A program made the translations under genes and the position numbers. The notes under the pieces are model-generated. The model ran no database searches. It had not been told where the DNA came from and saw only the letters and a program-made list of their open reading frames with translations. 64,000 nt of DNA, from assembly GCF_010993745.1 (NCBI RefSeq), contig NZ_WOTN01000001.1, positions 2,669,235 through 2,733,234 of the forward strand. The letters are read 5' to 3'. Positions 9,077-22,863 of the stretch are shown one piece after another (within the stretch, counting starts at the first letter, position 1; every line of letters starts with the position of its first letter). The DNA comes from Fodinicola acaciae (GTDB lineage Bacteria; Actinomycetota; Actinomycetes; Mycobacteriales; HKI-0501).

Positions 9077-9586
9077 GTGAGGCGATACGACAACGCGTGC
9101 GACAAGATCCTGGCCGCGGCCGTCCGGGTCATCGTCCGCGACGGGGTCGGCAGGCTGAGCGTCGACTCGGTGGCCAGCGAGGCCGGCATCAGCAAAGGCG
9201 GCTTCTTCTATCACTTCGCGACCAAGGCGAGCCTGCTCGCCGCGGTCACCGAGCACCTGCATGACGAGATGGAGCGAGCGGTGTCGCGGGGCGCGGCCAG
9301 CGACGACTGGCGGCGCGCGTACGTCGAGTGGGGTGTCATGGCCGACACCGACCGGATGACGGCTCTGCTGCGGCTGCGGTTACTTGCCGCCGACGACAAT
9401 CCAGGGGGTTCCGGCGATGAGCGGCGTACGCTCGCGCCGGCCCGCGACTGGGACTCCGGCGCCGGTCTGGTCATACGACTCGCTCTCGAAGGGCTGTGGC
9501 TCAACCGGGCCATGGGGACCACGCCGCTGGACGACGACCAGCGCTCGGCCGTACGCGCGACATTGCTCGCGCTGGTGGAGTCCTGA
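9077..9586 (+). CDS. TetR-family regulator upstream of the lanthipeptide locus
   Basis: A 169-residue TetR protein. The DNA-binding helix-turn-helix lies in residues about 10-55, with VASEAGISKGGFFYHFATKASLLAAV. The C-terminal ligand domain is short. The start is GTG. It could belong to the ArsR-SRPBCC group behind it or control the lanthipeptide precursor that starts 95 bases downstream. Position allows either. Confidence 0.88.
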   Translation: MRRYDNACDKILAAAVRVIVRDGVGRLSVDSVASEAGISKGGFFYHFATKASLLAAVTEHLHDEMERAVSRGAASDDWRRAYVEWGVMADTDRMTALLRLRLLAADDNPGGSGDERRTLAPARDWDSGAGLVIRLALEGLWLNRAMGTTPLDDDQRSAVRATLLALVES

Positions 9587-9680
9587 GCCGTCGCGTTTTC
9601 TTGCGAACGCACGATCCTATTGCCAGAGCCAAAACGGTGTGTTTCCATGGCAGCGTTTTCCTACCGACCGAGGAGGGCTC
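9587..9680 (+). promoter_or_regulatory. Leader region of the lanthipeptide precursor with a direct repeat
   Basis: GCGTTTTC occurs at 9593-9600 and again at 9653-9660, sixty bases apart, the only notable pattern in the gap. A strong ribosome binding site (GAGGAGGG at about 9669-9676) precedes the precursor ATG. A promoter is expected here, but I cannot fix -35 and -10 boxes with confidence. Confidence 0.35.
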
Positions 9681-9845
9681 ATGCCACCCGTACCGCACTA
9701 CGACATGCTCGACCTGGATCTGGAGCTCATGCCGCTGACCGAGGTCACCACCGACCGGGTCGCGTCCGAACAGGGCCGCAGCCGCACGACGAACACCTGC
9801 AACAGCTGGGCCACCAGCATCGCGAAGTGTTGCAACTGCAGCTGA
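9681..9845 (+). CDS. lanA: Class I lanthipeptide precursor peptide
   Basis: A 54-residue peptide directly before lanB. The N-terminal leader is acidic and contains MLDLDLEL (residues 9-16), resembling the F-x-L-D recognition box of class I leaders with Leu in place of Phe. The C-terminal segment, roughly residues 35-54, reads TTNTCNSWATSIAKCCNCS. It has four cysteines (40, 50, 51, 53) and seven Ser/Thr (36, 37, 39, 42, 45, 46, 54), a typical substrate for dehydration and thioether ring formation. A GAGGAGGG ribosome binding site supports the ATG at 9681. The leader cleavage site is unknown and no protease is encoded nearby. I believe the assignment from context and composition. Ring pattern is unpredictable. 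Confidence 0.85.
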   Translation: MPPVPHYDMLDLDLELMPLTEVTTDRVASEQGRSRTTNTCNSWATSIAKCCNCS

Positions 9846-9853
9846 TCCACCTT

Positions 9854-9870
9854 CTCCGCTAGCCGCGGAG
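9854..9870 (+). terminator. Hairpin after lanA
   Basis: CTCCGC and GCGGAG pair around TAGCC, nine bases after the lanA stop. Such hairpins often let most transcripts stop after the precursor gene so that precursor exceeds enzyme. Confidence 0.4.
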
Positions 9871-9943
9871 CTCACAGGCACGCCGGAGAGGCGTCGATCC
9901 GGGTCGGCGGATCGAGCGACGGACTCCGCGACACCTGCCGCGA

Positions 9944-9974
9944 ACGCCGTTTCCTTCGGCGTGCCTGCTTTTTT
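9944..9974 (+). terminator. Candidate attenuating terminator between lanA and lanB
   Basis: ACGCCG (9944-9949) and CGGCGT (9957-9962) form a stem with a 7-base loop, followed six bases later by a run of six T (9969-9974). It ends 32 bases before lanB. The gap between stem and T run is longer than ideal, so read-through is likely, as expected for an internal attenuator. Confidence 0.45.
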
Positions 9975-10006
9975 GCCGAGTTTCGCTTCTGAGGCAAGGA
10001 AATCGA

Positions 10007-12868
10007 GTGCAGCAGCCGCTGTTCGCGGCCGGCGAGGTGTTCGTCCTGCGCGCGCCGGCCGTCATGCCGAAGCCGGTGGCCGATCCGGCCGACCGCGTCG
10101 GCGACTTTCTTCGCGAGGCCGCCGCCGACCGGATTTTCCTGGAGGCGCTGGCGATCTCCAGTCCGTCGACGGCGGCCGCCATCGCCGCGGACGATCCGCA
10201 CCGGCGACGCCGGGTGGCGCTCACGACGAGCCGCTACCAACTCCGGATGCGGTCGCGCGCCACCCCCTTCGGCCTGTTGTCCGGCGTCGCCGCCGGCCGT
10301 CCCGGACCGACCTGCTCCGTAGTTTTCGGCTCGGCGCATGAGAAAGCCGCGCGGCCGAGCGGCGAGTGGGTCGCCGCGTACGCGGCAGGGTGCGCCGGCC
10401 GTCCGCAGGACTTTCCAGCCGCGACCGTACGCCTGCATCCGCTGTGCCGTCCGCGCGGCGACCGGTTGACGCTGCCGGACATCCGCGGCACCGGTGCGGA
10501 GTCCATCCGAGAGGCGTCCATCCGGCGTACGCCACCGGTGTGTGCCGTCGAGCAGCTGGCATCCGCGCGGATTTCGTTGGCAGATCTGGTCAACAGCCTC
10601 ACAGAGCGATTCGCCGAGTTGCCCGTCGAGCGGCTGTGGCGGTTTGTCGGCGCATTGATATCGGCCGGATTCCTGGCCTGCGACCTGTGGCCGGAGCAGT
10701 CCGACAGCGCTCCGCTGGAGCATTTCGTCGCACATTGCGGCCCCGACAACGTGTTGCTCACCGAGGCGGTCGACGCACTTTCCGCGTATCGAAAGACGAA
10801 ACTCGGCGACGGTCTGGAGCTGCGCGATCGCGCCGCGGCTGCTATGGGACGACTGACCGGCGAGGAGCCGGCCGGCATCCAGGTCGATCTCGGACTCGAC
10901 GCGCGGCTGACGTTGCCGCCGGTCGTGCTCCAGGAAATAGAGGCCGCGACGACCGCGTTGTGGCGGCTGTCGCCGAGCCGGGAAGCCTTCACCGGCCTTT
11001 CCGACTATCATCAGGAATTCGTGGAACGCTACGGGATCGGCGCTGCCGTGCCGATTCTCGACGTCCTCGATCCGGTGGCCGGTCTTGGTGCGCCAGGCGG
11101 CTACCGGCGACCGGCCGGCCATCGCGAGGCGCCGGACCGGCGCGCGCCGAAGCGGCAGGGAATAGCGGACCTGGCCATGCTCGTACACGCCGGCGCGGAC
11201 GAGATCGAGCTTTCCGCTTCACTGCTGGAAAAGCTGGACGCCGAGCCGGACGGCACGGTGTGGCCGTCGGCGGATGTCAGCTGCCAGTTGCTGGCCGCCA
11301 GCCCGGCCGCGGTGGACGCCGGCGACTTCCGTGTCAACGTCACACCGGTCGCCTGGCAGGCCGGCCAGATGTCCGGCCGATTCGCCGAGCTGACCGGCCT
11401 GACCGCGGATCTGGCCGCGATGCTGGAAAAACGGCTGACCGGCGGCAGGCCGGTGCAGCTGCAGTTCCAACCCGCCGATCCGCGGACCGGCAATGTCGGC
11501 CGGGTGCCGCGGCTGTTGCCCGCGCTGACCTCGATTTCCGGCCTCGGCGGCGATCTTTCCATCGGCGACATCGGCATCGCGGCTGATCTGGACGGCCTCT
11601 ACGCGGTTTCGCTCGTCACCGGCGAGGAAATCGCGCCGACTCCGATGACGATGATCAACCTTGAAGGCCTCACGCCCAACCCGGTGCGGCTGCTCACCGA
11701 GCTGGCCTTTGGCCGGGCGCGGCGCGTGATGCCGTGGTCGTGGGGTCCGCTGGACGAGCTGCCGCGGCTTCCGCGCGTACGCTATGGCCGCGCGATCCTG
11801 ATGCCGGCGCGCTGGCTGCCGGTCGGTCTGACCGGCGCGGACGCGCGGCGACCGGACTGGCCGCAGCGGCTGGCCAGCTGGCGCGAGCAACTGGAGGTGC
11901 CGGACAGAGTGCTGGTCGGCGATGTCGACCAGCGGCTCGGTCTCGATCTTTCCGATTCCTGGCACCGAGAACTATTGCGCACCGAGCTCGAACGCCGGCC
12001 AGAAGCGCTGGTGTCCGAGGACTTTTCCAGCGAGTACGGCTGGATCGCTGGTCGTCCGCACGAGATCATCGTGCCCGTCTTCGCGCGTAGGCAGCGCGAG
12101 CCGGTCACCGGCACGACCGGACCAACCCGGCCACCGGCGTACGCGCCAGGAGGAGATTGGCTCTACGCCAGGATTTCCACCGCACCGGACGCCATCGACG
12201 CCTTGCTGCCGGAGCTCGTACCACAGCTGCCACTGTCCGATGTGGACAGATGGTTTTTCATCCGCTACAACGATCCGCGGCCGCACCTGCGGCTCCGGTT
12301 TCACCGGCCGTCTGCGGAGTTGCTGCCAGCGCTGCACGACGCGGTCAGCAGAGCACGTGACCGCGGCCTGGCCGGCGGCCTGGAGCTTGGCACGTACGAG
12401 CCAGAGACAGCACGTTACGGCAGTGGCCAGGTGCTGGCAGCGGCAGAGCGCGTGTTCTGCGCTGACAGCCACGTCGTGTTCGAACAGCTCGGCCACAAGC
12501 GCGACCGCGAGGTCACAGCGGTGTTGCATTACCTCGACATCCTGTCGGCTTTCTGCCCTGACGGTTGGAAAGACTGGCTGGTGCACGCGATCGACCCGGC
12601 CGGCCGCAAGGAGCTGGATCGCAACCAGCGGCGCCAGGTCTTCCAGTCGCTGGATTCCCTCACGGGCGAGGCCATTTCACAACGCCGGCAGGCGCTGCGC
12701 GATTATGCGTCACTCCTGCGAGAAGCCGGCCAGCCGTCGTGGCAGGTGGTGGCGATGTCGTTGCTGCACATGCATTTCAATCGCGCCTATGGCATCGCGC
12801 CACCAACGGAGCGTCGCTCGCTTTCGTTGCTGCGTGAGGTCACACACGGCCTGCTCGTCCGCCGATGA
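10007..12868 (+). CDS. lanB: Full-length lantibiotic dehydratase LanB
   Basis: A 953-residue class I dehydratase. The N-terminal part (to about residue 650) is the glutamylation domain, with SRYQLRMRSRATPFGLLSG at residues 75-93. The last 240 residues (from DWLYARIS near residue 716, with WFFIRYNDPRPHLRLRFH) are the SpaB_C-type elimination domain. By family knowledge it uses glutamyl-tRNA to activate Ser/Thr and then eliminates glutamate to give dehydroamino acids. Both domains in one chain mark a lanthipeptide enzyme rather than the split form of thiopeptides. The start is GTG with AAGGAA upstream. It overlaps lanC by four bases. Confidence 0.95.
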   Translation: MQQPLFAAGEVFVLRAPAVMPKPVADPADRVGDFLREAAADRIFLEALAISSPSTAAAIAADDPHRRRRVALTTSRYQLRMRSRATPFGLLSGVAAGRPGPTCSVVFGSAHEKAARPSGEWVAAYAAGCAGRPQDFPAATVRLHPLCRPRGDRLTLPDIRGTGAESIREASIRRTPPVCAVEQLASARISLADLVNSLTERFAELPVERLWRFVGALISAGFLACDLWPEQSDSAPLEHFVAHCGPDNVLLTEAVDALSAYRKTKLGDGLELRDRAAAAMGRLTGEEPAGIQVDLGLDARLTLPPVVLQEIEAATTALWRLSPSREAFTGLSDYHQEFVERYGIGAAVPILDVLDPVAGLGAPGGYRRPAGHREAPDRRAPKRQGIADLAMLVHAGADEIELSASLLEKLDAEPDGTVWPSADVSCQLLAASPAAVDAGDFRVNVTPVAWQAGQMSGRFAELTGLTADLAAMLEKRLTGGRPVQLQFQPADPRTGNVGRVPRLLPALTSISGLGGDLSIGDIGIAADLDGLYAVSLVTGEEIAPTPMTMINLEGLTPNPVRLLTELAFGRARRVMPWSWGPLDELPRLPRVRYGRAILMPARWLPVGLTGADARRPDWPQRLASWREQLEVPDRVLVGDVDQRLGLDLSDSWHRELLRTELERRPEALVSEDFSSEYGWIAGRPHEIIVPVFARRQREPVTGTTGPTRPPAYAPGGDWLYARISTAPDAIDALLPELVPQLPLSDVDRWFFIRYNDPRPHLRLRFHRPSAELLPALHDAVSRARDRGLAGGLELGTYEPETARYGSGQVLAAAERVFCADSHVVFEQLGHKRDREVTAVLHYLDILSAFCPDGWKDWLVHAIDPAGRKELDRNQRRQVFQSLDSLTGEAISQRRQALRDYASLLREAGQPSWQVVAMSLLHMHFNRAYGIAPPTERRSLSLLREVTHGLLVRR

Positions 12869-14049
12869 CCGACATCGTCGCCGAAGTCGCCGAGCGACTG
12901 GCCGACCCCGCCGCCGTCCGCCACCTCGCAGAGACAGCAGAGACGGCCGGCCGGTGGGACGATCTTTCGCTGGCCGCCGGGCATCCCGGCATCGCGGTCT
13001 TCTTTGCCGAGCTGGCCGCGACCGACGCACAATGGCGGCCGGCATTGCACGCCTGGCTCACCGCCTGCGCGCCACATGTCGCCGGCAGAGTGCCGCGCGG
13101 CCTTTACGAAGGACCGGCGGCGATGGCCTTCGCGACCCGGATGGCACACATCGCAACCGGTTCGTACGGCCGGTCGCTGGAACGGCTCGACACGCTGATG
13201 GCTCGCTCTTTCACCGTACGACTGCGATCCGAGTGGCCCGGCGAGGTGCGAGTCGGCGACTACGACGTGGTCAACGGCATCACCGGTGCGCTGCGCTATC
13301 TGTTGCTGGCCGGACAAACTGACGCGGTCGCCGAAGGAGTGACGGCGCTGGTCAGTCTCGCCGGACCGTACGACCGGCGGCCCGGCTGGTGGGTCGCCGA
13401 GGCGCCGGGCCGGCAGGATCCGGCCGGTTTTCCGGACGGTCACGCCAATCTCGGCCTGGCGCACGGCATCTCCGGACCGCTGGCCATGCTGGCGATGGCG
13501 GTCGAGGCCGGCATCGTCGTCGACGGCCAGGACGCCGCCATCGTACGAATCGTCGAGTGGCTGCTGGAAAACCTGCACGACGACCACTGGCCGCCGTTCA
13601 TCCGCCGGCCGGCCGAACGGATCGACCGGCGAGAGCGAGCGAGCTGGTGTTACGGCACACCTGGCATCGCGCGCGCATTGTGGCTCGCCGGCCGGGCGCT
13701 CCGGCGTCCACAGTGGACGGTCGTGGCGGAGCGGGCCATCGACGCCGTCTGTGCGCTGCCGACCGGCCTGTCCGACCCGGGACTCTGCCACGGGTGGGCC
13801 GGCCTGGCGCACATCCTGTCGCTCTTTCCTGTCACCCAGGCGCGCGCGGCCGCCTACGAGCGCGCCATCGCCGAGATCGTCGCGAGGTTCGAGCCGGACA
13901 CGGTCTTTGGCTTTCGCCACACCGGATACGCCGGCCAGCTCGACAACCCCGGCCTGCTCGACGGTGCCGCCGGCGCCGCGCTCGTCCTCCAGACGTACGC
14001 GACCGGCCAGCCGGCGACACCGTGGGACGCCGCCTTCATCCTCGGCTGA
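12865..14049 (+). CDS. lanC: Lanthionine cyclase LanC
   Basis: A 394-residue cyclase. The zinc ligands Cys262 (SWCYGTPGI), Cys308 and His309 (GLCHGWAG) are present, and His200 lies in LGLAHGISG, so the enzyme should be active. It adds cysteine thiols to dehydroalanine or dehydrobutyrine to form (methyl)lanthionine rings. The ATG overlaps the lanB stop. No transporter, leader peptidase or immunity gene follows. The next gene is convergent and unrelated, so export and maturation must rely on genes elsewhere. Confidence 0.95.
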   Translation: MTDIVAEVAERLADPAAVRHLAETAETAGRWDDLSLAAGHPGIAVFFAELAATDAQWRPALHAWLTACAPHVAGRVPRGLYEGPAAMAFATRMAHIATGSYGRSLERLDTLMARSFTVRLRSEWPGEVRVGDYDVVNGITGALRYLLLAGQTDAVAEGVTALVSLAGPYDRRPGWWVAEAPGRQDPAGFPDGHANLGLAHGISGPLAMLAMAVEAGIVVDGQDAAIVRIVEWLLENLHDDHWPPFIRRPAERIDRRERASWCYGTPGIARALWLAGRALRRPQWTVVAERAIDAVCALPTGLSDPGLCHGWAGLAHILSLFPVTQARAAAYERAIAEIVARFEPDTVFGFRHTGYAGQLDNPGLLDGAAGAALVLQTYATGQPATPWDAAFILG

Positions 14050-17553: not shown

Positions 17554-18858
17554 GTGCAGCAGGTGCCTGCCAGGATCGCCGGCCGTCCGGTGACCGCGGA
17601 CCGCTGGCTGTCCGTACACAATCCGTACGACGGCACCGAGGTCGCGCGCGTGCCGGCGTTGGGGGCCGAGCACGTCGACCAGGCCGGCCGGGCCGCGGCC
17701 GCGCTGGTCGCCGCCGGTCCGCCGCTCGACGCTGAGGAACGTGCGGTCGTGCTGGAAAGCGCCGCCGCGCTGCTCACCGACCGCACCGGCGAGTTCGCCT
17801 ACACGATCGTCGCCGAGGCAGGAAAACCAGCCGCTGCCGCGCGCCGCGAGGTCGATCAGGCAGCGCGCGCGTTGCGTACGGCCGCCGCCGAAGGACGCCA
17901 CCTGGCCAGCGCCGTGCCGCCGCTGCCGAGCTCGGCGAGCGTACGGTTCACACTGCACGATCCGGTCGGTCCGGTCGCCGCGGTGACCGGCTATCAGCTG
18001 CCGCTGGCGCTGGCCGCGGCGCGCATCGGTCCAGCCGTCGCAGCCGGCTGTCCGGTGCTGCTCAAGCCGTCGGCGAAGGCGCCGGTGTCGGCCGTACGGC
18101 TGGTCGACCTGCTGGTCGAGGCCGGCCTGCCGGACGCGTGGGTGTCGGTGCTGACCGGCGACTCGTGCACAGGCGCGGCGCTGGTCAAACATCAGGCCGT
18201 ACGGCTGGTCACCTTCGCCGGCGGCACCACGATCTCGGCCGCCGGCCGCGTGCTGCTCGACCACACGGCCGTCTGTCCGGTGATCGTGGAGCCCGACGCC
18301 GACCTGGCCGAGGCCACCGAGGCGATCACCGCCGGTGCGTTCGGCTTCGCCGGTCAGCTCTGGTCGGCCAGCCGGCGCGTCATCGTGCACCGGGACGTAC
18401 AGCTCGACCTGGCCGACCGGCTGGCCAGCAGCGCGGCGGCGCTGGTCGTCGGCGACCCGGCCGATCCGGCCACCGACCTCGGGCCGGTGATCTCGACCGG
18501 CCACGCACAACGGCTCACTGAGCTGCTGCCCGACCTGGACGTACGGTCACGCCCGCCGGCTCCGGCGGTGCCGCTGATCGCGCCGCGGCTCACCGACCAT
18601 GTCGTGGACGCGCCGGGGCCGGTGCTGAGCATCGAGCCATACGCCGACCTCGATGAGGCCTTCGCACTCGCCAGCGGCGGACGCGCCGCGATCTTCACGC
18701 GTGACGTACGCACCGCCGTGTGGGCCGCTCGTGCCCTGCCGGCGCGGTCGGTGCTGGTCAACGCCGTACCCGATGTCGGACCGCTGGCCAGCGACAGTCC
18801 ACAGGCGCCGGCGGCGGCGCTGCACACCGACCGAAGAACCGTCCTGCTCGCCGGCTGA
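17554..18858 (+). CDS. Aldehyde dehydrogenase homologue lacking the catalytic cysteine
   Basis: A 434-residue member of the ALDH superfamily by overall layout (VLLKPSAKAPVSA cofactor block, GDSCTGAALVKHQAVRLVTFAGG Rossmann part). The active site is not conserved. The usual GQ-x-C-x-A stretch reads GQLWSASRR, putting Trp270 at the nucleophile. The E-L-G-G-K stretch holding the general base is absent. PWNYPL is replaced by GYQLPL. It is therefore probably a pseudoenzyme, perhaps regulatory or a subunit partner of the intact dehydrogenase at 22880. The GTG start has GGAGG seven bases upstream. It is the first gene of the operon, and the ABC ATPase starts 40 bases after it. Confidence 0.85.
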   Translation: MQQVPARIAGRPVTADRWLSVHNPYDGTEVARVPALGAEHVDQAGRAAAALVAAGPPLDAEERAVVLESAAALLTDRTGEFAYTIVAEAGKPAAAARREVDQAARALRTAAAEGRHLASAVPPLPSSASVRFTLHDPVGPVAAVTGYQLPLALAAARIGPAVAAGCPVLLKPSAKAPVSAVRLVDLLVEAGLPDAWVSVLTGDSCTGAALVKHQAVRLVTFAGGTTISAAGRVLLDHTAVCPVIVEPDADLAEATEAITAGAFGFAGQLWSASRRVIVHRDVQLDLADRLASSAAALVVGDPADPATDLGPVISTGHAQRLTELLPDLDVRSRPPAPAVPLIAPRLTDHVVDAPGPVLSIEPYADLDEAFALASGGRAAIFTRDVRTAVWAARALPARSVLVNAVPDVGPLASDSPQAPAAALHTDRRTVLLAG

Positions 18859-18898
18859 GCTGTGTCCTTTCTGGTTGCCGACCCCCGACGGAGCCCCG

Positions 18899-19999
18899 AT
18901 GGCTGAGAAACAGACCGCACCGCTGGAAAAACCGGCCGCGACGCCGTCGATCAGCCTGCGCGCGCTGCGGAAGTCGTTCGACCGCACCGAAGCCGTCCGC
19001 GGCGTCGACCTGGACATCGCCGACGGCGAGTTCTTCTCGCTGCTGGGTCCGTCCGGCTCCGGGAAGACGACCGTGTTGCGGATGATCGCCGGCTTCGAGC
19101 TGCCGACCGCCGGCCAGATCCTGTTGGCCGGCAGGGACGTCAGCCAGACCGCGCCGTTCGACCGCGACGTCAACACGGTTTTCCAGGACTACGCACTGTT
19201 TCCGCACATGACCGTGCTGGCCAACATCGAGTACGGCCTGAAGGTCAAAGGCGTCCGCAGGCCGGAACGCCGCCGGCGTGCGTTGCAGGCATTGGAAAGC
19301 GTACGGCTGCCGGATGTCGGTGGTCGCAAACCGGCGCAGCTGTCCGGTGGTCAGCGCCAGCGGATCGCGCTGGCGCGTGCTTTGGTCAATCGGCCGAAAG
19401 TGCTGCTGCTGGACGAGCCGCTCGGCGCGCTCGACCTGAAGCTGCGGCAGGAAATGCAGATAGAGCTGAAAAAGATCCAGCGCGAGGTCGGCATCACCTT
19501 CGTTTTCGTGACGCACGACCAGGAGGAGGCGCTGACCATGAGCGACCGGATCGCCGTGCTGGCCGACGGCAGGATCGAGCAGGTCGGCACGCCGGTTGAG
19601 GTGTACGAGCATCCGGCGACCGACTTCGTGGCCGGTTTCGTGGGCACCGCCAACCTCACGACCGGCCAGGAATCCGTTGCCGTGCACGGATTCGACGGCA
19701 CGGTCAGCCTGCGGCCCGAGCGTATCCGCATCGAGGACACGACCACCGCGGCCGCCGACGACGAACGCCGCGCGGACGGCATCGTCTCCGACATCGCTTA
19801 TGTCGGCTCGCAAATCCGCTTCTCGGTCGAGCTCGACGCCGGCGTGACGATGACCGTACTCGTGCCGAACACCGCGATCCGGCGGCCGCCGGCGGCCGCC
19901 GAGCGCGTCCGGCTGGTCTGGAAGTCCGCGCACGCTCTGCGTGTCGGCGTCACCCAAGCAGCAGAGAAAGAGTCCGTTTCCACCGAGGGGGAATCATGA
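18899..19999 (+). CDS. Polyamine-type ABC importer ATPase (PotA-like)
   Basis: A 366-residue ATPase. Walker A GPSGSGKT is at 50-57, the signature LSGGQRQR, Walker B VLLLDEP and the H-loop VTHDQEEA are intact. A TOBE-like C-terminal region (from about residue 265) is typical of spermidine/putrescine and iron-type importers. It overlaps the binding protein gene by four bases. The membership in the PotA subfamily comes from sequence pattern and from the binding protein and permeases that follow. Confidence 0.9.
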   Translation: MAEKQTAPLEKPAATPSISLRALRKSFDRTEAVRGVDLDIADGEFFSLLGPSGSGKTTVLRMIAGFELPTAGQILLAGRDVSQTAPFDRDVNTVFQDYALFPHMTVLANIEYGLKVKGVRRPERRRRALQALESVRLPDVGGRKPAQLSGGQRQRIALARALVNRPKVLLLDEPLGALDLKLRQEMQIELKKIQREVGITFVFVTHDQEEALTMSDRIAVLADGRIEQVGTPVEVYEHPATDFVAGFVGTANLTTGQESVAVHGFDGTVSLRPERIRIEDTTTAAADDERRADGIVSDIAYVGSQIRFSVELDAGVTMTVLVPNTAIRRPPAAAERVRLVWKSAHALRVGVTQAAEKESVSTEGES

Positions 20000-21189
20000 A
20001 AGGCCGGAAGATCGTCGCGATCGCGGCATGTGTTGGCCTGGCGGTGGCCGGCGCCGGTTGCGGGTCAGGCTCGACCAGCACCGGAAGTGGCGGCGCGCCA
20101 CCGAAAGTCGCGATGCTGGACAAGCTCGGCACGCCGGAGGGCCAGGTCAACGTGATCGCCTGGGCCGGCTATGCCGAGGACGGCTCCACCGACCCGAAGG
20201 TCGACTGGGTCCATCCGTTCACCAAGGCCACCGGCTGCAAGGTCAACGTCAAGGTCGCCGGCACGTCCGACGAGATGGTGACGCTGATGAAGACCAACCA
20301 GTACGACGTGGTGTCGGCGTCCGGCGACGCGAGCCTGCGGCTGGTCTACAGCGGCACGGCCGCGCCGGTGAACACGAAGCTGGTGCCGAACTACGCGACG
20401 ATCTTCCCGTTCCTGAAAAACCGCGCGTGGAACTCGGTCGACGGCCAGGCGTACGGCATCCCGCACGGCTGGGGCGCCAACCTGTTGCAGTACAACACCG
20501 ACGTGGTCAAGCCGGCACCGACCTCGTGGGGTGTGGTGTTCCAGGCTTGGTCGCCGTACAAGGGAAAGATCACCGCATACGACTCGCCGATCTACATCGC
20601 CGACGCGGCGCTCTACCTGATGAAGACCAAGCCGGAGCTCGGCATCAAGAACCCGTACGCGCTGGACGACAAGCAGTTCCAGGCGGCGGTCGCGCTTTTG
20701 AAGCAACAGAAGGCAAACGTCGGCGAATACTGGTCTGACTACACGAAATCGGTGCAGTCCTTCGAATCCGGCGGCTCGGTGGTCGGCACCACCTGGCAGG
20801 TCATCAACAACCTGATCACCAGCGACAAGAAGGTCAAGGTCAACGCGATCCTGCCGGCGGAGGGCTCGACCGGCTGGTCGGACACCTGGATGGTGGCCGC
20901 GAAGGCGCCGCATCCGACCTGCTCGTACAAATGGCTGGACTGGATCGTCTCTCCGTCGGTGAACGCTCAGGTCGCCACCTACTTCGGCGAGGCCCCGGCA
21001 CAGTCCAAGTCGTGCCAGGAAAAGGACATGACCGAGCAGTGCGCGACCTTCCACGCCGCGGACAAGCCGTACTCGGACAAGATCTGGTACTGGACCACGC
21101 CGACCGCCAAGTGCCTGGACGGCCGGACCGACGCGACCTGCACCGACTACACCAAGTGGACGCAGGCCTGGACCGAAATCAAGGGATAG
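19996..21189 (+). CDS. PotD-like polyamine-binding lipoprotein
   Basis: A 397-residue solute-binding protein with a signal peptide and a lipobox at Cys22 (AGAGC). The mature part has INVIAWAGYAEDG-like and YGIPHGWGANLLQYN segments, as in spermidine/putrescine binding proteins. It is anchored outside the membrane and delivers substrate to the two permeases encoded next. Exact ligand unknown. Putrescine, spermidine or a related amine is likely because the operon ends with a gamma-aminobutyraldehyde-type dehydrogenase. Confidence 0.88.
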   Translation: MKGRKIVAIAACVGLAVAGAGCGSGSTSTGSGGAPPKVAMLDKLGTPEGQVNVIAWAGYAEDGSTDPKVDWVHPFTKATGCKVNVKVAGTSDEMVTLMKTNQYDVVSASGDASLRLVYSGTAAPVNTKLVPNYATIFPFLKNRAWNSVDGQAYGIPHGWGANLLQYNTDVVKPAPTSWGVVFQAWSPYKGKITAYDSPIYIADAALYLMKTKPELGIKNPYALDDKQFQAAVALLKQQKANVGEYWSDYTKSVQSFESGGSVVGTTWQVINNLITSDKKVKVNAILPAEGSTGWSDTWMVAAKAPHPTCSYKWLDWIVSPSVNAQVATYFGEAPAQSKSCQEKDMTEQCATFHAADKPYSDKIWYWTTPTAKCLDGRTDATCTDYTKWTQAWTEIKG

Positions 21190-21193
21190 CCCG

Positions 21194-22051
21194 ATGACCG
21201 CCGCGCTTTCCCGGCTGCTGTATCGCAAACCGCTGGTCCGGCTCGGATCCCTGCTGTCGCTGCCATTGCTGTGGCTGGTGGTCGCCTACCTCGGCTCGCT
21301 GGCCGCGATGTTCCTGACCGCCTTCTGGACGGTGGACTCCTTCACCGGCAACCTGGTCCCCGGCTTCTCGCTGGGAAACTTCGCCGGCCTGGTGTCCGAT
21401 GCCATCTATCGTACGGTCGCGGCGCGCAGCCTCGGAGTCGCCGTGCTGGTGACCATGATCGACGCGGTCATCGCGCTGCCGTTGGCTTTCTTCATGGCAA
21501 AAGTGGCGTCGCCGCGGGCGCAGCGGTTTCTGGTGGCGGCGGTGCTGACGCCGTTGTGGGCCAGCTATCTGGTGAAAGCGTACGCGTGGCGGGTCATGCT
21601 CGGCGGTTCCGGTGTTTTCGACTGGATGATCGGTGGTGGCGGCCAGTCCTACTATGGCCTCAGCGCCACCACCATCACGTTGGCGTACCTGTGGCTGCCG
21701 TACATGATCCTGCCGGTCTACGCCGGCCTGGAAAGGATCCCGGACTCGCTGCTGGAGGCTTCCAGCGACCTCGGTGCGAGCGCCTGGCGCACCTTCCGGT
21801 CGGTCGTGCTGCCGCTGCTGTTTCCGGCCGTCGTCGCCGGCTCGATCTTCACGTTTTCGTTGACGCTAGGCGACTACATCACGGTGAAGATCGTCGGCGG
21901 CAAGTCGCAGCTGTTCGCGAACATCATCTATGACAACGTGGTGACCGCGGACAACCTGCCGTTCGCGGCCGCCGCCGGCCTCTTTCCGGTCGTCGTCATG
22001 TTGGTCTATCTCGCCGCCGTCCGGCGGTCCGGCGCATTGGACAACCTCTGA
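21194..22051 (+). CDS. ABC importer permease, PotB-like
   Basis: A 285-residue inner membrane protein with about six hydrophobic segments. The ATPase contact (EAA) loop reads LLEASSDLGASAWRTFRSVVLP, matching the E-A-A---G consensus. The start ATG lies four bases after the binding protein stop. It overlaps the second permease by one base. Confidence 0.92.
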   Translation: MTAALSRLLYRKPLVRLGSLLSLPLLWLVVAYLGSLAAMFLTAFWTVDSFTGNLVPGFSLGNFAGLVSDAIYRTVAARSLGVAVLVTMIDAVIALPLAFFMAKVASPRAQRFLVAAVLTPLWASYLVKAYAWRVMLGGSGVFDWMIGGGGQSYYGLSATTITLAYLWLPYMILPVYAGLERIPDSLLEASSDLGASAWRTFRSVVLPLLFPAVVAGSIFTFSLTLGDYITVKIVGGKSQLFANIIYDNVVTADNLPFAAAAGLFPVVVMLVYLAAVRRSGALDNL

Positions 22052-22863
22052 TGATCCTGTCCCGACGCGCGCGCGTCCTGCTGTATGTGGCGATGGTCGT
22101 CGGCCTCGCGGTGATTTACCTGCCGTTGCTGGTCGTCGTGGTCAACTCCTTCAACTCGTCGCGTACTTTTGGCTGGCCACCGACCGGATTCACGCTGGAG
22201 TGGTGGGGCCGTACGATCGGCAACGCCGGCATGTTGCAGGCGTTGCTCACCAGCGTCGAGGCCGGCATCGGCGCGACCGTCGTGGCGTTGGTCCTCGGCA
22301 CGATGGCCGCTTTCGCCGTACAACGCTATCGATTTTTCGGCCGCGACACGATCTCGCTGCTGGTCGTGTTGCCGCTGGCATTGCCCGGCGTGGTCACCGG
22401 CATCGCGCTGAACAACGCTTTTCGCGCTGCGCTGGAGCCTTTCGGTATTTCGCTCGGATTGTTCACGGTTGTCGTCGGCCACGCCACCTTCTGCATCGTC
22501 ATCGTCTACAACAACGTGCTGGCGCGGCTGCGGCGGCTTGGTGGATCGCTGGAGGAGGCGTCGATGGACCTCGGCGCCAACGTCTTCCAGACCTTCCGCT
22601 ATGTGACTTTTCCGTTGATCCGTACGGCATTGCTGTCCGGCGGCCTGCTCGCCTTCGCGTTGTCGTTCGACGAGATCATCGTGACGACGTTCACCGCGGG
22701 ACCGGGTGTGACGACGTTGCCGATCTGGATTTTCTCCAACCTTTTCCGGCCCAACCAGGCACCGGTGGTCAACGTGGTCGCGGCCGCGCTCGTGCTGTTG
22801 TCGGTGCTGCCGGTGTGGTTGGCTACCCGAGTCGGCGGCGAGAGCGCCGGCGGACGTCTGTGA
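22051..22863 (+). CDS. ABC importer permease, PotC-like
   Basis: A 270-residue partner permease with about six membrane segments and an EAA loop reading [22 protein letters not shown]. The ATG overlaps the stop of the first permease (TGATG), which fits equimolar production of the heterodimeric channel. Confidence 0.92.

What the first reader, a model, noticed from the sequence alone, without database searches (positions are those of the whole stretch)
9681..14049. Minimal class I lanthipeptide locus with an unusual Cys-rich precursor
A 54-residue precursor with a leader box MLDLDLEL and four cysteines (residues 40, 50, 51, 53) lies directly before intact LanB and LanC. Two adjacent cysteines at 50-51 plus Cys53 leave only Ser54 after them, so most rings must close backwards onto Ser/Thr 36-46. 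There is no transporter, protease or immunity gene. The core TTNTCNSWATSIAKCCNCS does not resemble any named lanthipeptide I know.
Basis: partly seen in the sequence, partly recalled or inferred. Interest (0 to 1): 0.75.

Follow-up and report, generated by a model that had tools for sequence, protein, structure and literature searches.

The report
Small class I lanthipeptide gene set
An actinobacterium carries a compact three-gene set that very probably makes a small ring-bearing (lanthionine) peptide; the gene set is of a well-known kind, but the peptide sequence itself matches no family model that was tried.

Summary
A 54-residue precursor (9681-9845) with Cys 40, 50, 51, 53 and leader box DMLDLDLEL lies before an intact full-length LanB (10007-12868) and LanC (12865-14049); family matches are unambiguous and the published motifs tested are present. 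It is a class I lanthipeptide locus of a common actinobacterial type: 84 of 98 other LanB genes checked have a short boxed ORF near their 5' end. Two claims of oddness weaken. Lack of a nearby exporter is common (18 of 33 other loci have no ABC ATPase-like ORF within 5 kb), and published clusters also lack a protease. Cysteines closing onto upstream Ser/Thr is the normal direction. The core fits no lanthipeptide model in Pfam or NCBIfam, but is not unique: a genome of another family of the class (L151/L153) has a homologous core, TPTTVNTYAAGIAMCIPCC (8 of 18 identical, ungapped; best z over 93 C-termini reached by 0 of 400 shuffles; weaker by raw score). The window LanB is an isolated lineage. 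Verdict: new member of a known kind with an orphan-like core; product, rings and activity are inferred.

The parts
9671..9676 (+). AGGAGG ribosome-binding site of lanA
   Evidence: read directly
9681..9845 (+). lanA: 54-aa precursor, leader box DMLDLDLEL (residues 8-16), Cys 40/50/51/53
   Evidence: homologous core in L151/L153; leader resembles L162/L163 leaders
9875..9974 (+). predicted hairpin with 14-pair outer stem (9875-9888 with 9954-9967) and T run 9969-9974 between lanA and lanB; possible partial terminator
   Evidence: MFE -65.9 kcal/mol for 9846-9985, z -2.7, 2 of 200 shuffles as good; the simple scan found one site here (inner stem 9944-9962), 0.5 expected; not shown to be conserved
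10007..12868 (+). lanB: full-length lantibiotic dehydratase, glutamylation and elimination domains
   Evidence: PDB best match 5ehk, 332 bits
12865..14049 (+). lanC: lanthionine cyclase with WCYG and CHG zinc-ligand motifs
9077..9586 (+). TetR-family regulator just upstream; possibly unrelated (conservation beside relatives not tested)
   Evidence: TetR_N 2.4e-13

Best explanation
The locus is a compact lanABC set for one class I lanthipeptide. LanA is translated; its LDLD-type leader box is bound by LanB, which glutamylates Ser/Thr in the core (residues 36-46, perhaps S54) from Glu-tRNA and eliminates glutamate; LanC then adds the cysteines onto the dehydro residues, giving up to four thioether rings. 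Cys50 and Cys53, conserved in L151 and aligned with the CxxC end of SCO0268-type peptides, probably make the old C-terminal rings; Cys40 and Cys51 are extra in this peptide. Leader removal and export are done by proteins encoded elsewhere. Shown: genes, domains, catalytic motifs, a homologous precursor. Inferred: expression, modification, ring pattern, cleavage site (perhaps after Arg35), export and activity.
For: LanB/LanC families and E-values; TIGR03891 on the LanB C-terminus; residues aligned with NisB R83, R87, T89, R784, R786, E823, R826 and motifs YxxR, RxTPFG, FxxxYG, GxG, GRF, PxxxRxxNV, RYG, HxxxNR; NisC motifs WCYG, CHG, GLAHG, DYDV. Boxed short ORFs near lanB in 84 of 98 other LanB genes, about 77 on the same strand and 7 divergent. 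Homologous core in L151/L153: z 7.1, 0 of 1000 pairwise shuffles, 0 of 400 by maximum z over 93 C-termini. lanC overlaps lanB by 4 bases.
Against: No product or transcript seen. By raw score over a 28-peptide panel 56 of 1000 shuffles reach the L151 score somewhere. The L153 lanB reads in two frames in that draft, so the one relative with a like core may be decayed or misassembled. The other genome of the genus (G001, 74% complete) shows no close LanB (best 33%) and no precursor. The window LanB groups with no clade with confidence.
Confidence: 0.85

Rival explanations
1. The set is a silent or decaying remnant: enzymes are still intact but exporter and other genes were lost, and no peptide is released.
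For: No exporter-like or subtilisin-like gene nearby by motif; isolated LanB lineage with the longest end branch of the tree; no close LanB in G001.
Against: All three ORFs are intact with the tested motifs kept and lanA has a strong ribosome-binding site; 18 of 33 other loci have no nearby ABC ATPase-like ORF.
Confidence: 0.12
2. LanB and LanC here mainly act on another precursor encoded elsewhere in the genome; 9681-9845 is not the true substrate.
For: The genome has 8 LanB genes with several different precursors, so cross-talk is possible.
Against: Position, box, ribosome-binding site, and a homologous precursor directly before a lanB in L153.
Confidence: 0.03
3. A reading of the role, not of the chemistry: the mature peptide is not an antibiotic but a signalling or morphogenetic (surface-active) peptide, which would explain the lack of nearby immunity and export genes.
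For: A title in the listing (PMC9011353) calls SapT a morphogenetic lanthipeptide; that SapT is class I is recalled. Dmxorosin, with no protease in its cluster but a split LanB, showed no inhibition zones (passages of PMC11855644).
Against: No direct evidence; embleporicin, of the LDLD type and without a cluster LanP, inhibits Micrococcus luteus once the leader is cut (passages and section 2.1 of PMC11672506).
Confidence: 0.35

Closest known systems
   Same: 54-aa precursor, FELDVEL box, core TPTTVNTYAAGIAMCIPCC aligned without gaps to the window core; lanB and lanC follow; no ABC ATPase-like ORF within 5 kb
   Different: three core Cys (C50 and C53 equivalents plus a last Cys where the window has Ser54); lacks Cys40 and Cys51; its lanB reads in two frames in the draft
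SCO0268 family (TIGR04451) and embleporicin (Embleya; PMC11672506)
   Same: LDLD box, [ST][YW] and CxxC near the C-terminus in L127, L138, L174 and the Embleya ORF of L227; lanABC core, no LanP in the embleporicin cluster
   Different: window precursor does not match TIGR04451, has four Cys in another spacing and no final CC; the embleporicin cluster has a P450 and a permease
FxLD family lanthipeptides (TIGR04363) with FxlM methyltransferase
   Same: class I, LanB + LanC, box in leader
   Different: no TIGR04363 match (positive control L010 at 65 bits); next gene after lanC is a glycoside hydrolase on the other strand, not fxlM (annotated controls); LanB outside the clade that holds the FxLD-looking loci
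Microbisporicin/planosporicin and nisin
   Same: LanB best solved match is 5ehk (MibB, name recalled), NisB further down; same chemistry expected
   Different: no CTPGC in the core, unlike L009 and L199; no TIGR03731 match

Membership tests
Class I lanthipeptide locus | full-length LanB with dehydratase N and C domains | tested here: met
   PF04738 2e-150, PF14028 3.9e-45; motifs
Class I lanthipeptide locus | separate LanC with zinc ligands | tested here: met
   WCYG at 261, CHG at 308
Class I lanthipeptide locus | precursor with FxLD/LDLD-type leader box and Cys plus Ser/Thr in the core | tested here: met
   84 of 98 other LanB genes have a boxed short ORF nearby
Class I lanthipeptide locus | thioether rings in the product | not testable with these tools
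   needs mass spectrometry
FxLD family (TIGR04363, with FxlM) | precursor matches the family model | tested here: not met
   not listed at E up to 10 (filters drop most matches above about 0.1; the only line was an unrelated kinase model, E 0.12); positive control L010
FxLD family (TIGR04363, with FxlM) | FxlM methyltransferase next to lanC | tested here: not met
   next gene is a glycoside hydrolase family 3 on the other strand; controls
SCO0268 family (TIGR04451) | precursor matches the family model | tested here: not met
   L138 matches at 89.5 bits, L127 at 33.7 (cut-off 40)
FDLD family class I lanthipeptide (NF038155) and gallidermin/nisin family (TIGR03731) | precursor matches the family model | tested here: not met
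   L009 matches both above cut-off
L151-like precursor group (proposed here) | homologous core beyond composition | tested here: met
   0 of 400 shuffles by maximum z over 93 C-termini; by raw score 56 of 1000; one relative only

The most novel reading that the evidence does not exclude
The window peptide and L151 founded a separate small subfamily of class I lanthipeptides, in which C-terminal cysteines at CCxC/CxxCC close onto Thr/Ser 8-14 residues upstream to make interlocked rings unlike nisin or SCO0268 peptides, produced and exported without any dedicated exporter or protease.
Probability: 0.3. Interest if true: 0.5.

Novelty: new member of a known kind. Interest (0 to 1): 0.3.

Why it matters
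It is a tidy, complete set (one precursor, two enzymes) that could be tested quickly by co-expression, with a core outside the family models tried here and a LanB of a deep, poorly sampled lineage. The comparison also shows that lanABC sets without a nearby exporter are common in this group, so how such peptides leave the cell and lose their leader is an open general question.

Tried and rejected
Precursor searches: in 394 genomes of the class, 26 match at E 0.1, one being itself and the other 25 weak (best E 0.0027, with a stop inside); in 3 genomes of the family, itself and one match at E 0.22. Judged chance. The genome-contig scan with LanB kept 80 of 180 loci, by their titles Bacteroidota, at 20-34% identity: off target and dropped. 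The precursor has no match in plasmids; a DNA search of plasmids gave 5 records with short matches, 4 in lanC and 1 in the upstream TetR region. Strings of these cores: 0 papers hold any of the four. FxLD, SCO0268, FDLD and gallidermin families considered and rejected for the precursor. The hairpin after lanA as a conserved feature: not supported; 4 of 15 other gaps tested gave any terminator-like site, and the script tried only even hairpin lengths, so it missed the window's own 14-pair stem. The exporter/protease census goes by sequence motifs, not profiles, on loci chosen by me from the stronger LanB matches. Trees: one search left out L016 and used only the C-terminal piece of L153; one search kept 39 relatives, few of them FxLD-type. 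In the earlier ORF lists the filter missed some precursors (for example L199) and passed some spurious ORFs, and the 93-member panel holds spurious ORFs too; one search recounts, and there the same-strand hits in L162 and L163 are spurious, their true precursors being divergent.

Full report
Observation. lanA is 9681-9845, 54 codons, MPPVPHYDMLDLDLELMPLTEVTTDRVASEQGRSRTTNTCNSWATSIAKCCNCS, Cys 40, 50, 51, 53, with AGGAGG at 9671-9676. lanB is 10007-12868 and lanC 12865-14049. A frame with this kind of box and at least four Cys in the last 16 residues is found once in the window and 0 times in 60 Markov windows.

Enzymes. LanB matches Lant_dehydr_N (2e-150, residues 41-657) and Lant_dehydr_C (3.9e-45); LanC matches LANC_like (3.8e-49). 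Among solved structures LanB is closest to 5ehk (332 bits; MibB, name recalled), then 9g04 (145) and NisB (100); LanC to 8byk (112 bits) and NisC (71). The alignment keeps the residues at NisB R83, R87, T89, R784, R786, E823 and R826 (numbered by counting along the alignment with an offset of 3; that these are catalytic is recalled). Of the motifs listed for LanB and LanC in PMC3091789 (section 32 read), YxxR, RxTPFG, FxxxYG, GxG, GRF, PxxxRxxNV, RYG, HxxxNR, WCYG and CHG are present. RFL, LxxG, GxxxGxxGxxLxL and the listed single residues were not tested.

Relatives. The genome holds 8 LanB genes counting the window (9 match rows, two of one gene). LanB matches: 8 of 61 genomes (own and relatives) at E 0.001, 55 of 394 of the class at 1e-60, 45 of 250 of family f31 at 1e-85, 2 of 35 of family f32 at 1e-95, 0 of 22 of family f34 at 1e-80, 28 of 298 of the order at 1e-80. 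No match that spans most of LanB passes 42% identity (L126, residues 38-824); those spanning nearly all of it reach 38-40%; short pieces reach 43% and 47%. Apart from the window's, 84 of 98 LanB genes have a boxed short ORF with Cys near their 5' end, about 77 on the same strand and 7 divergent (after setting aside one duplicate and correcting two spurious hits); 14 have none by this filter (L006, L008, L014, L015, L126, L142, L166, L168, L175, L180, L181, L190, L192, L240), some of which do have one by an earlier filter or a longer stretch (L142; L166, as L219). In a tree of 43 LanBs one clade of 29 rows (100/100) holds the FxLD-looking loci (only L010 was tested by model) and the window LanB lies outside it. 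In a second tree of 40 rows it has the longest end branch (1.32), at most 37% identity to any row, and no well-supported set holds it.

Core. No Pfam family takes the precursor; NCBIfam lists only an unrelated kinase model at E 0.12, while the same library recognises FxLD (L010), SCO0268 (L138; L127 below cut-off) and planosporicin-like (L009) peptides. Against 93 C-termini from the relatives one stands out: L151, whose last residues align without gaps over 18 positions, 8 identical, z 7.1; 0 of 400 shuffles of the window core reach that maximum z, the best being 5.8. In an earlier run on 28 peptides 0 of 1000 shuffles reach it pairwise, but 56 of 1000 reach the raw score somewhere in the panel. 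The leader is closest to those of L162/L163 (0 of 1000 each; 3 of 1000 over the panel by raw score). An alignment with L151, L127, L138 and L174 leaves M1, L12, D13, C50 and C53 invariant, suggesting a distant tie to the SCO0268/embleporicin ending, but five rows are few. L227, an Embleya plasmid record, has an ORF ending GVQSRCPLCCA, which fits the description of EmpA in PMC11672506 (section 2.1 read); its letters were not compared with EmpA.

Missing genes. In 34 loci examined (window included), an ABC ATPase-like ORF lies within 5 kb in 16, none in 18. Of the 33 others, 18 have none; twelve have an exporter-type ORF (ATPase motifs plus membrane spans, about 630-880 residues as called) beside lanB/lanC (L215-L222, L224, L225, L228, L231), L155 and L158 have one further off, and L239 has ATPase-like ORFs without spans. 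One (L220) has a subtilisin-like motif hit. The window's own match is the importer-like ATPase 4.6 kb away. The test is by motif, and 7 of the 33 have under 5 kb on one side (L156, both loci of L160, L219, L227, L228, L231). Papers agree that actinobacterial clusters often lack a protease (PMC11672506; PMC11855644 passages).

Mechanism. LanB and LanC chemistry follows from the families. Ring closure from Cys to an upstream dehydro residue is the usual direction, so it is not an oddity. The comparison with L151 suggests T36, T39 and S42 as old ring partners and C50/C53 as old cysteines, with C40 and C51 (and T37, T45, S46) added in the window peptide; this is inference from one relative. A predicted 14-pair hairpin with six T after it lies between lanA and lanB and may let lanA be made in excess; the simple terminator scan found 1 site where 0.5 is expected, and conservation is not shown.

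Verdict. An ordinary kind of locus with an orphan-like core and an isolated LanB lineage.

Noticed in passing
G000 (window's genome), L002-L008: The genome has 8 LanB genes including the window's, with quite different precursors (two FxLD-looking, L005 and L007; none found by the filter for L006 and L008).
   Followed up: partly
L160 (G000:C1:400000-419500): Two LanB loci lie about 5 kb apart; one has a boxed precursor ending GETCGGVTGHPCAC, two LanC genes in a row and an ORF that looks like a sigma factor (not tested) beside it.
   Followed up: partly
L162-L165, L167 (L215-L218, L220): A family of precursors of about 72 residues (FDLD box; core with TCGTQVSWSGTC and an APGMC end) divergent from lanB, with an ABC exporter-like ORF nearby and in some a second LanC; no NCBIfam match for the two tested, no Pfam match for the one tested.
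   Followed up: partly
L153 7654-10786: The lanB of the only relative with a homologous core reads in two overlapping frames: either a broken gene or a draft error.
   Followed up: partly
L171 703-1285; L219 4909-5387: Loci with two tandem, similar precursor genes.
   Followed up: no
   Followed up: no
window 18653-22863: ABC ATPase with TOBE_2 domain, a lipoprotein that looks like a binding protein, and two membrane ORFs (one matched to PF00528): looks like a polyamine-type importer.
   Followed up: partly
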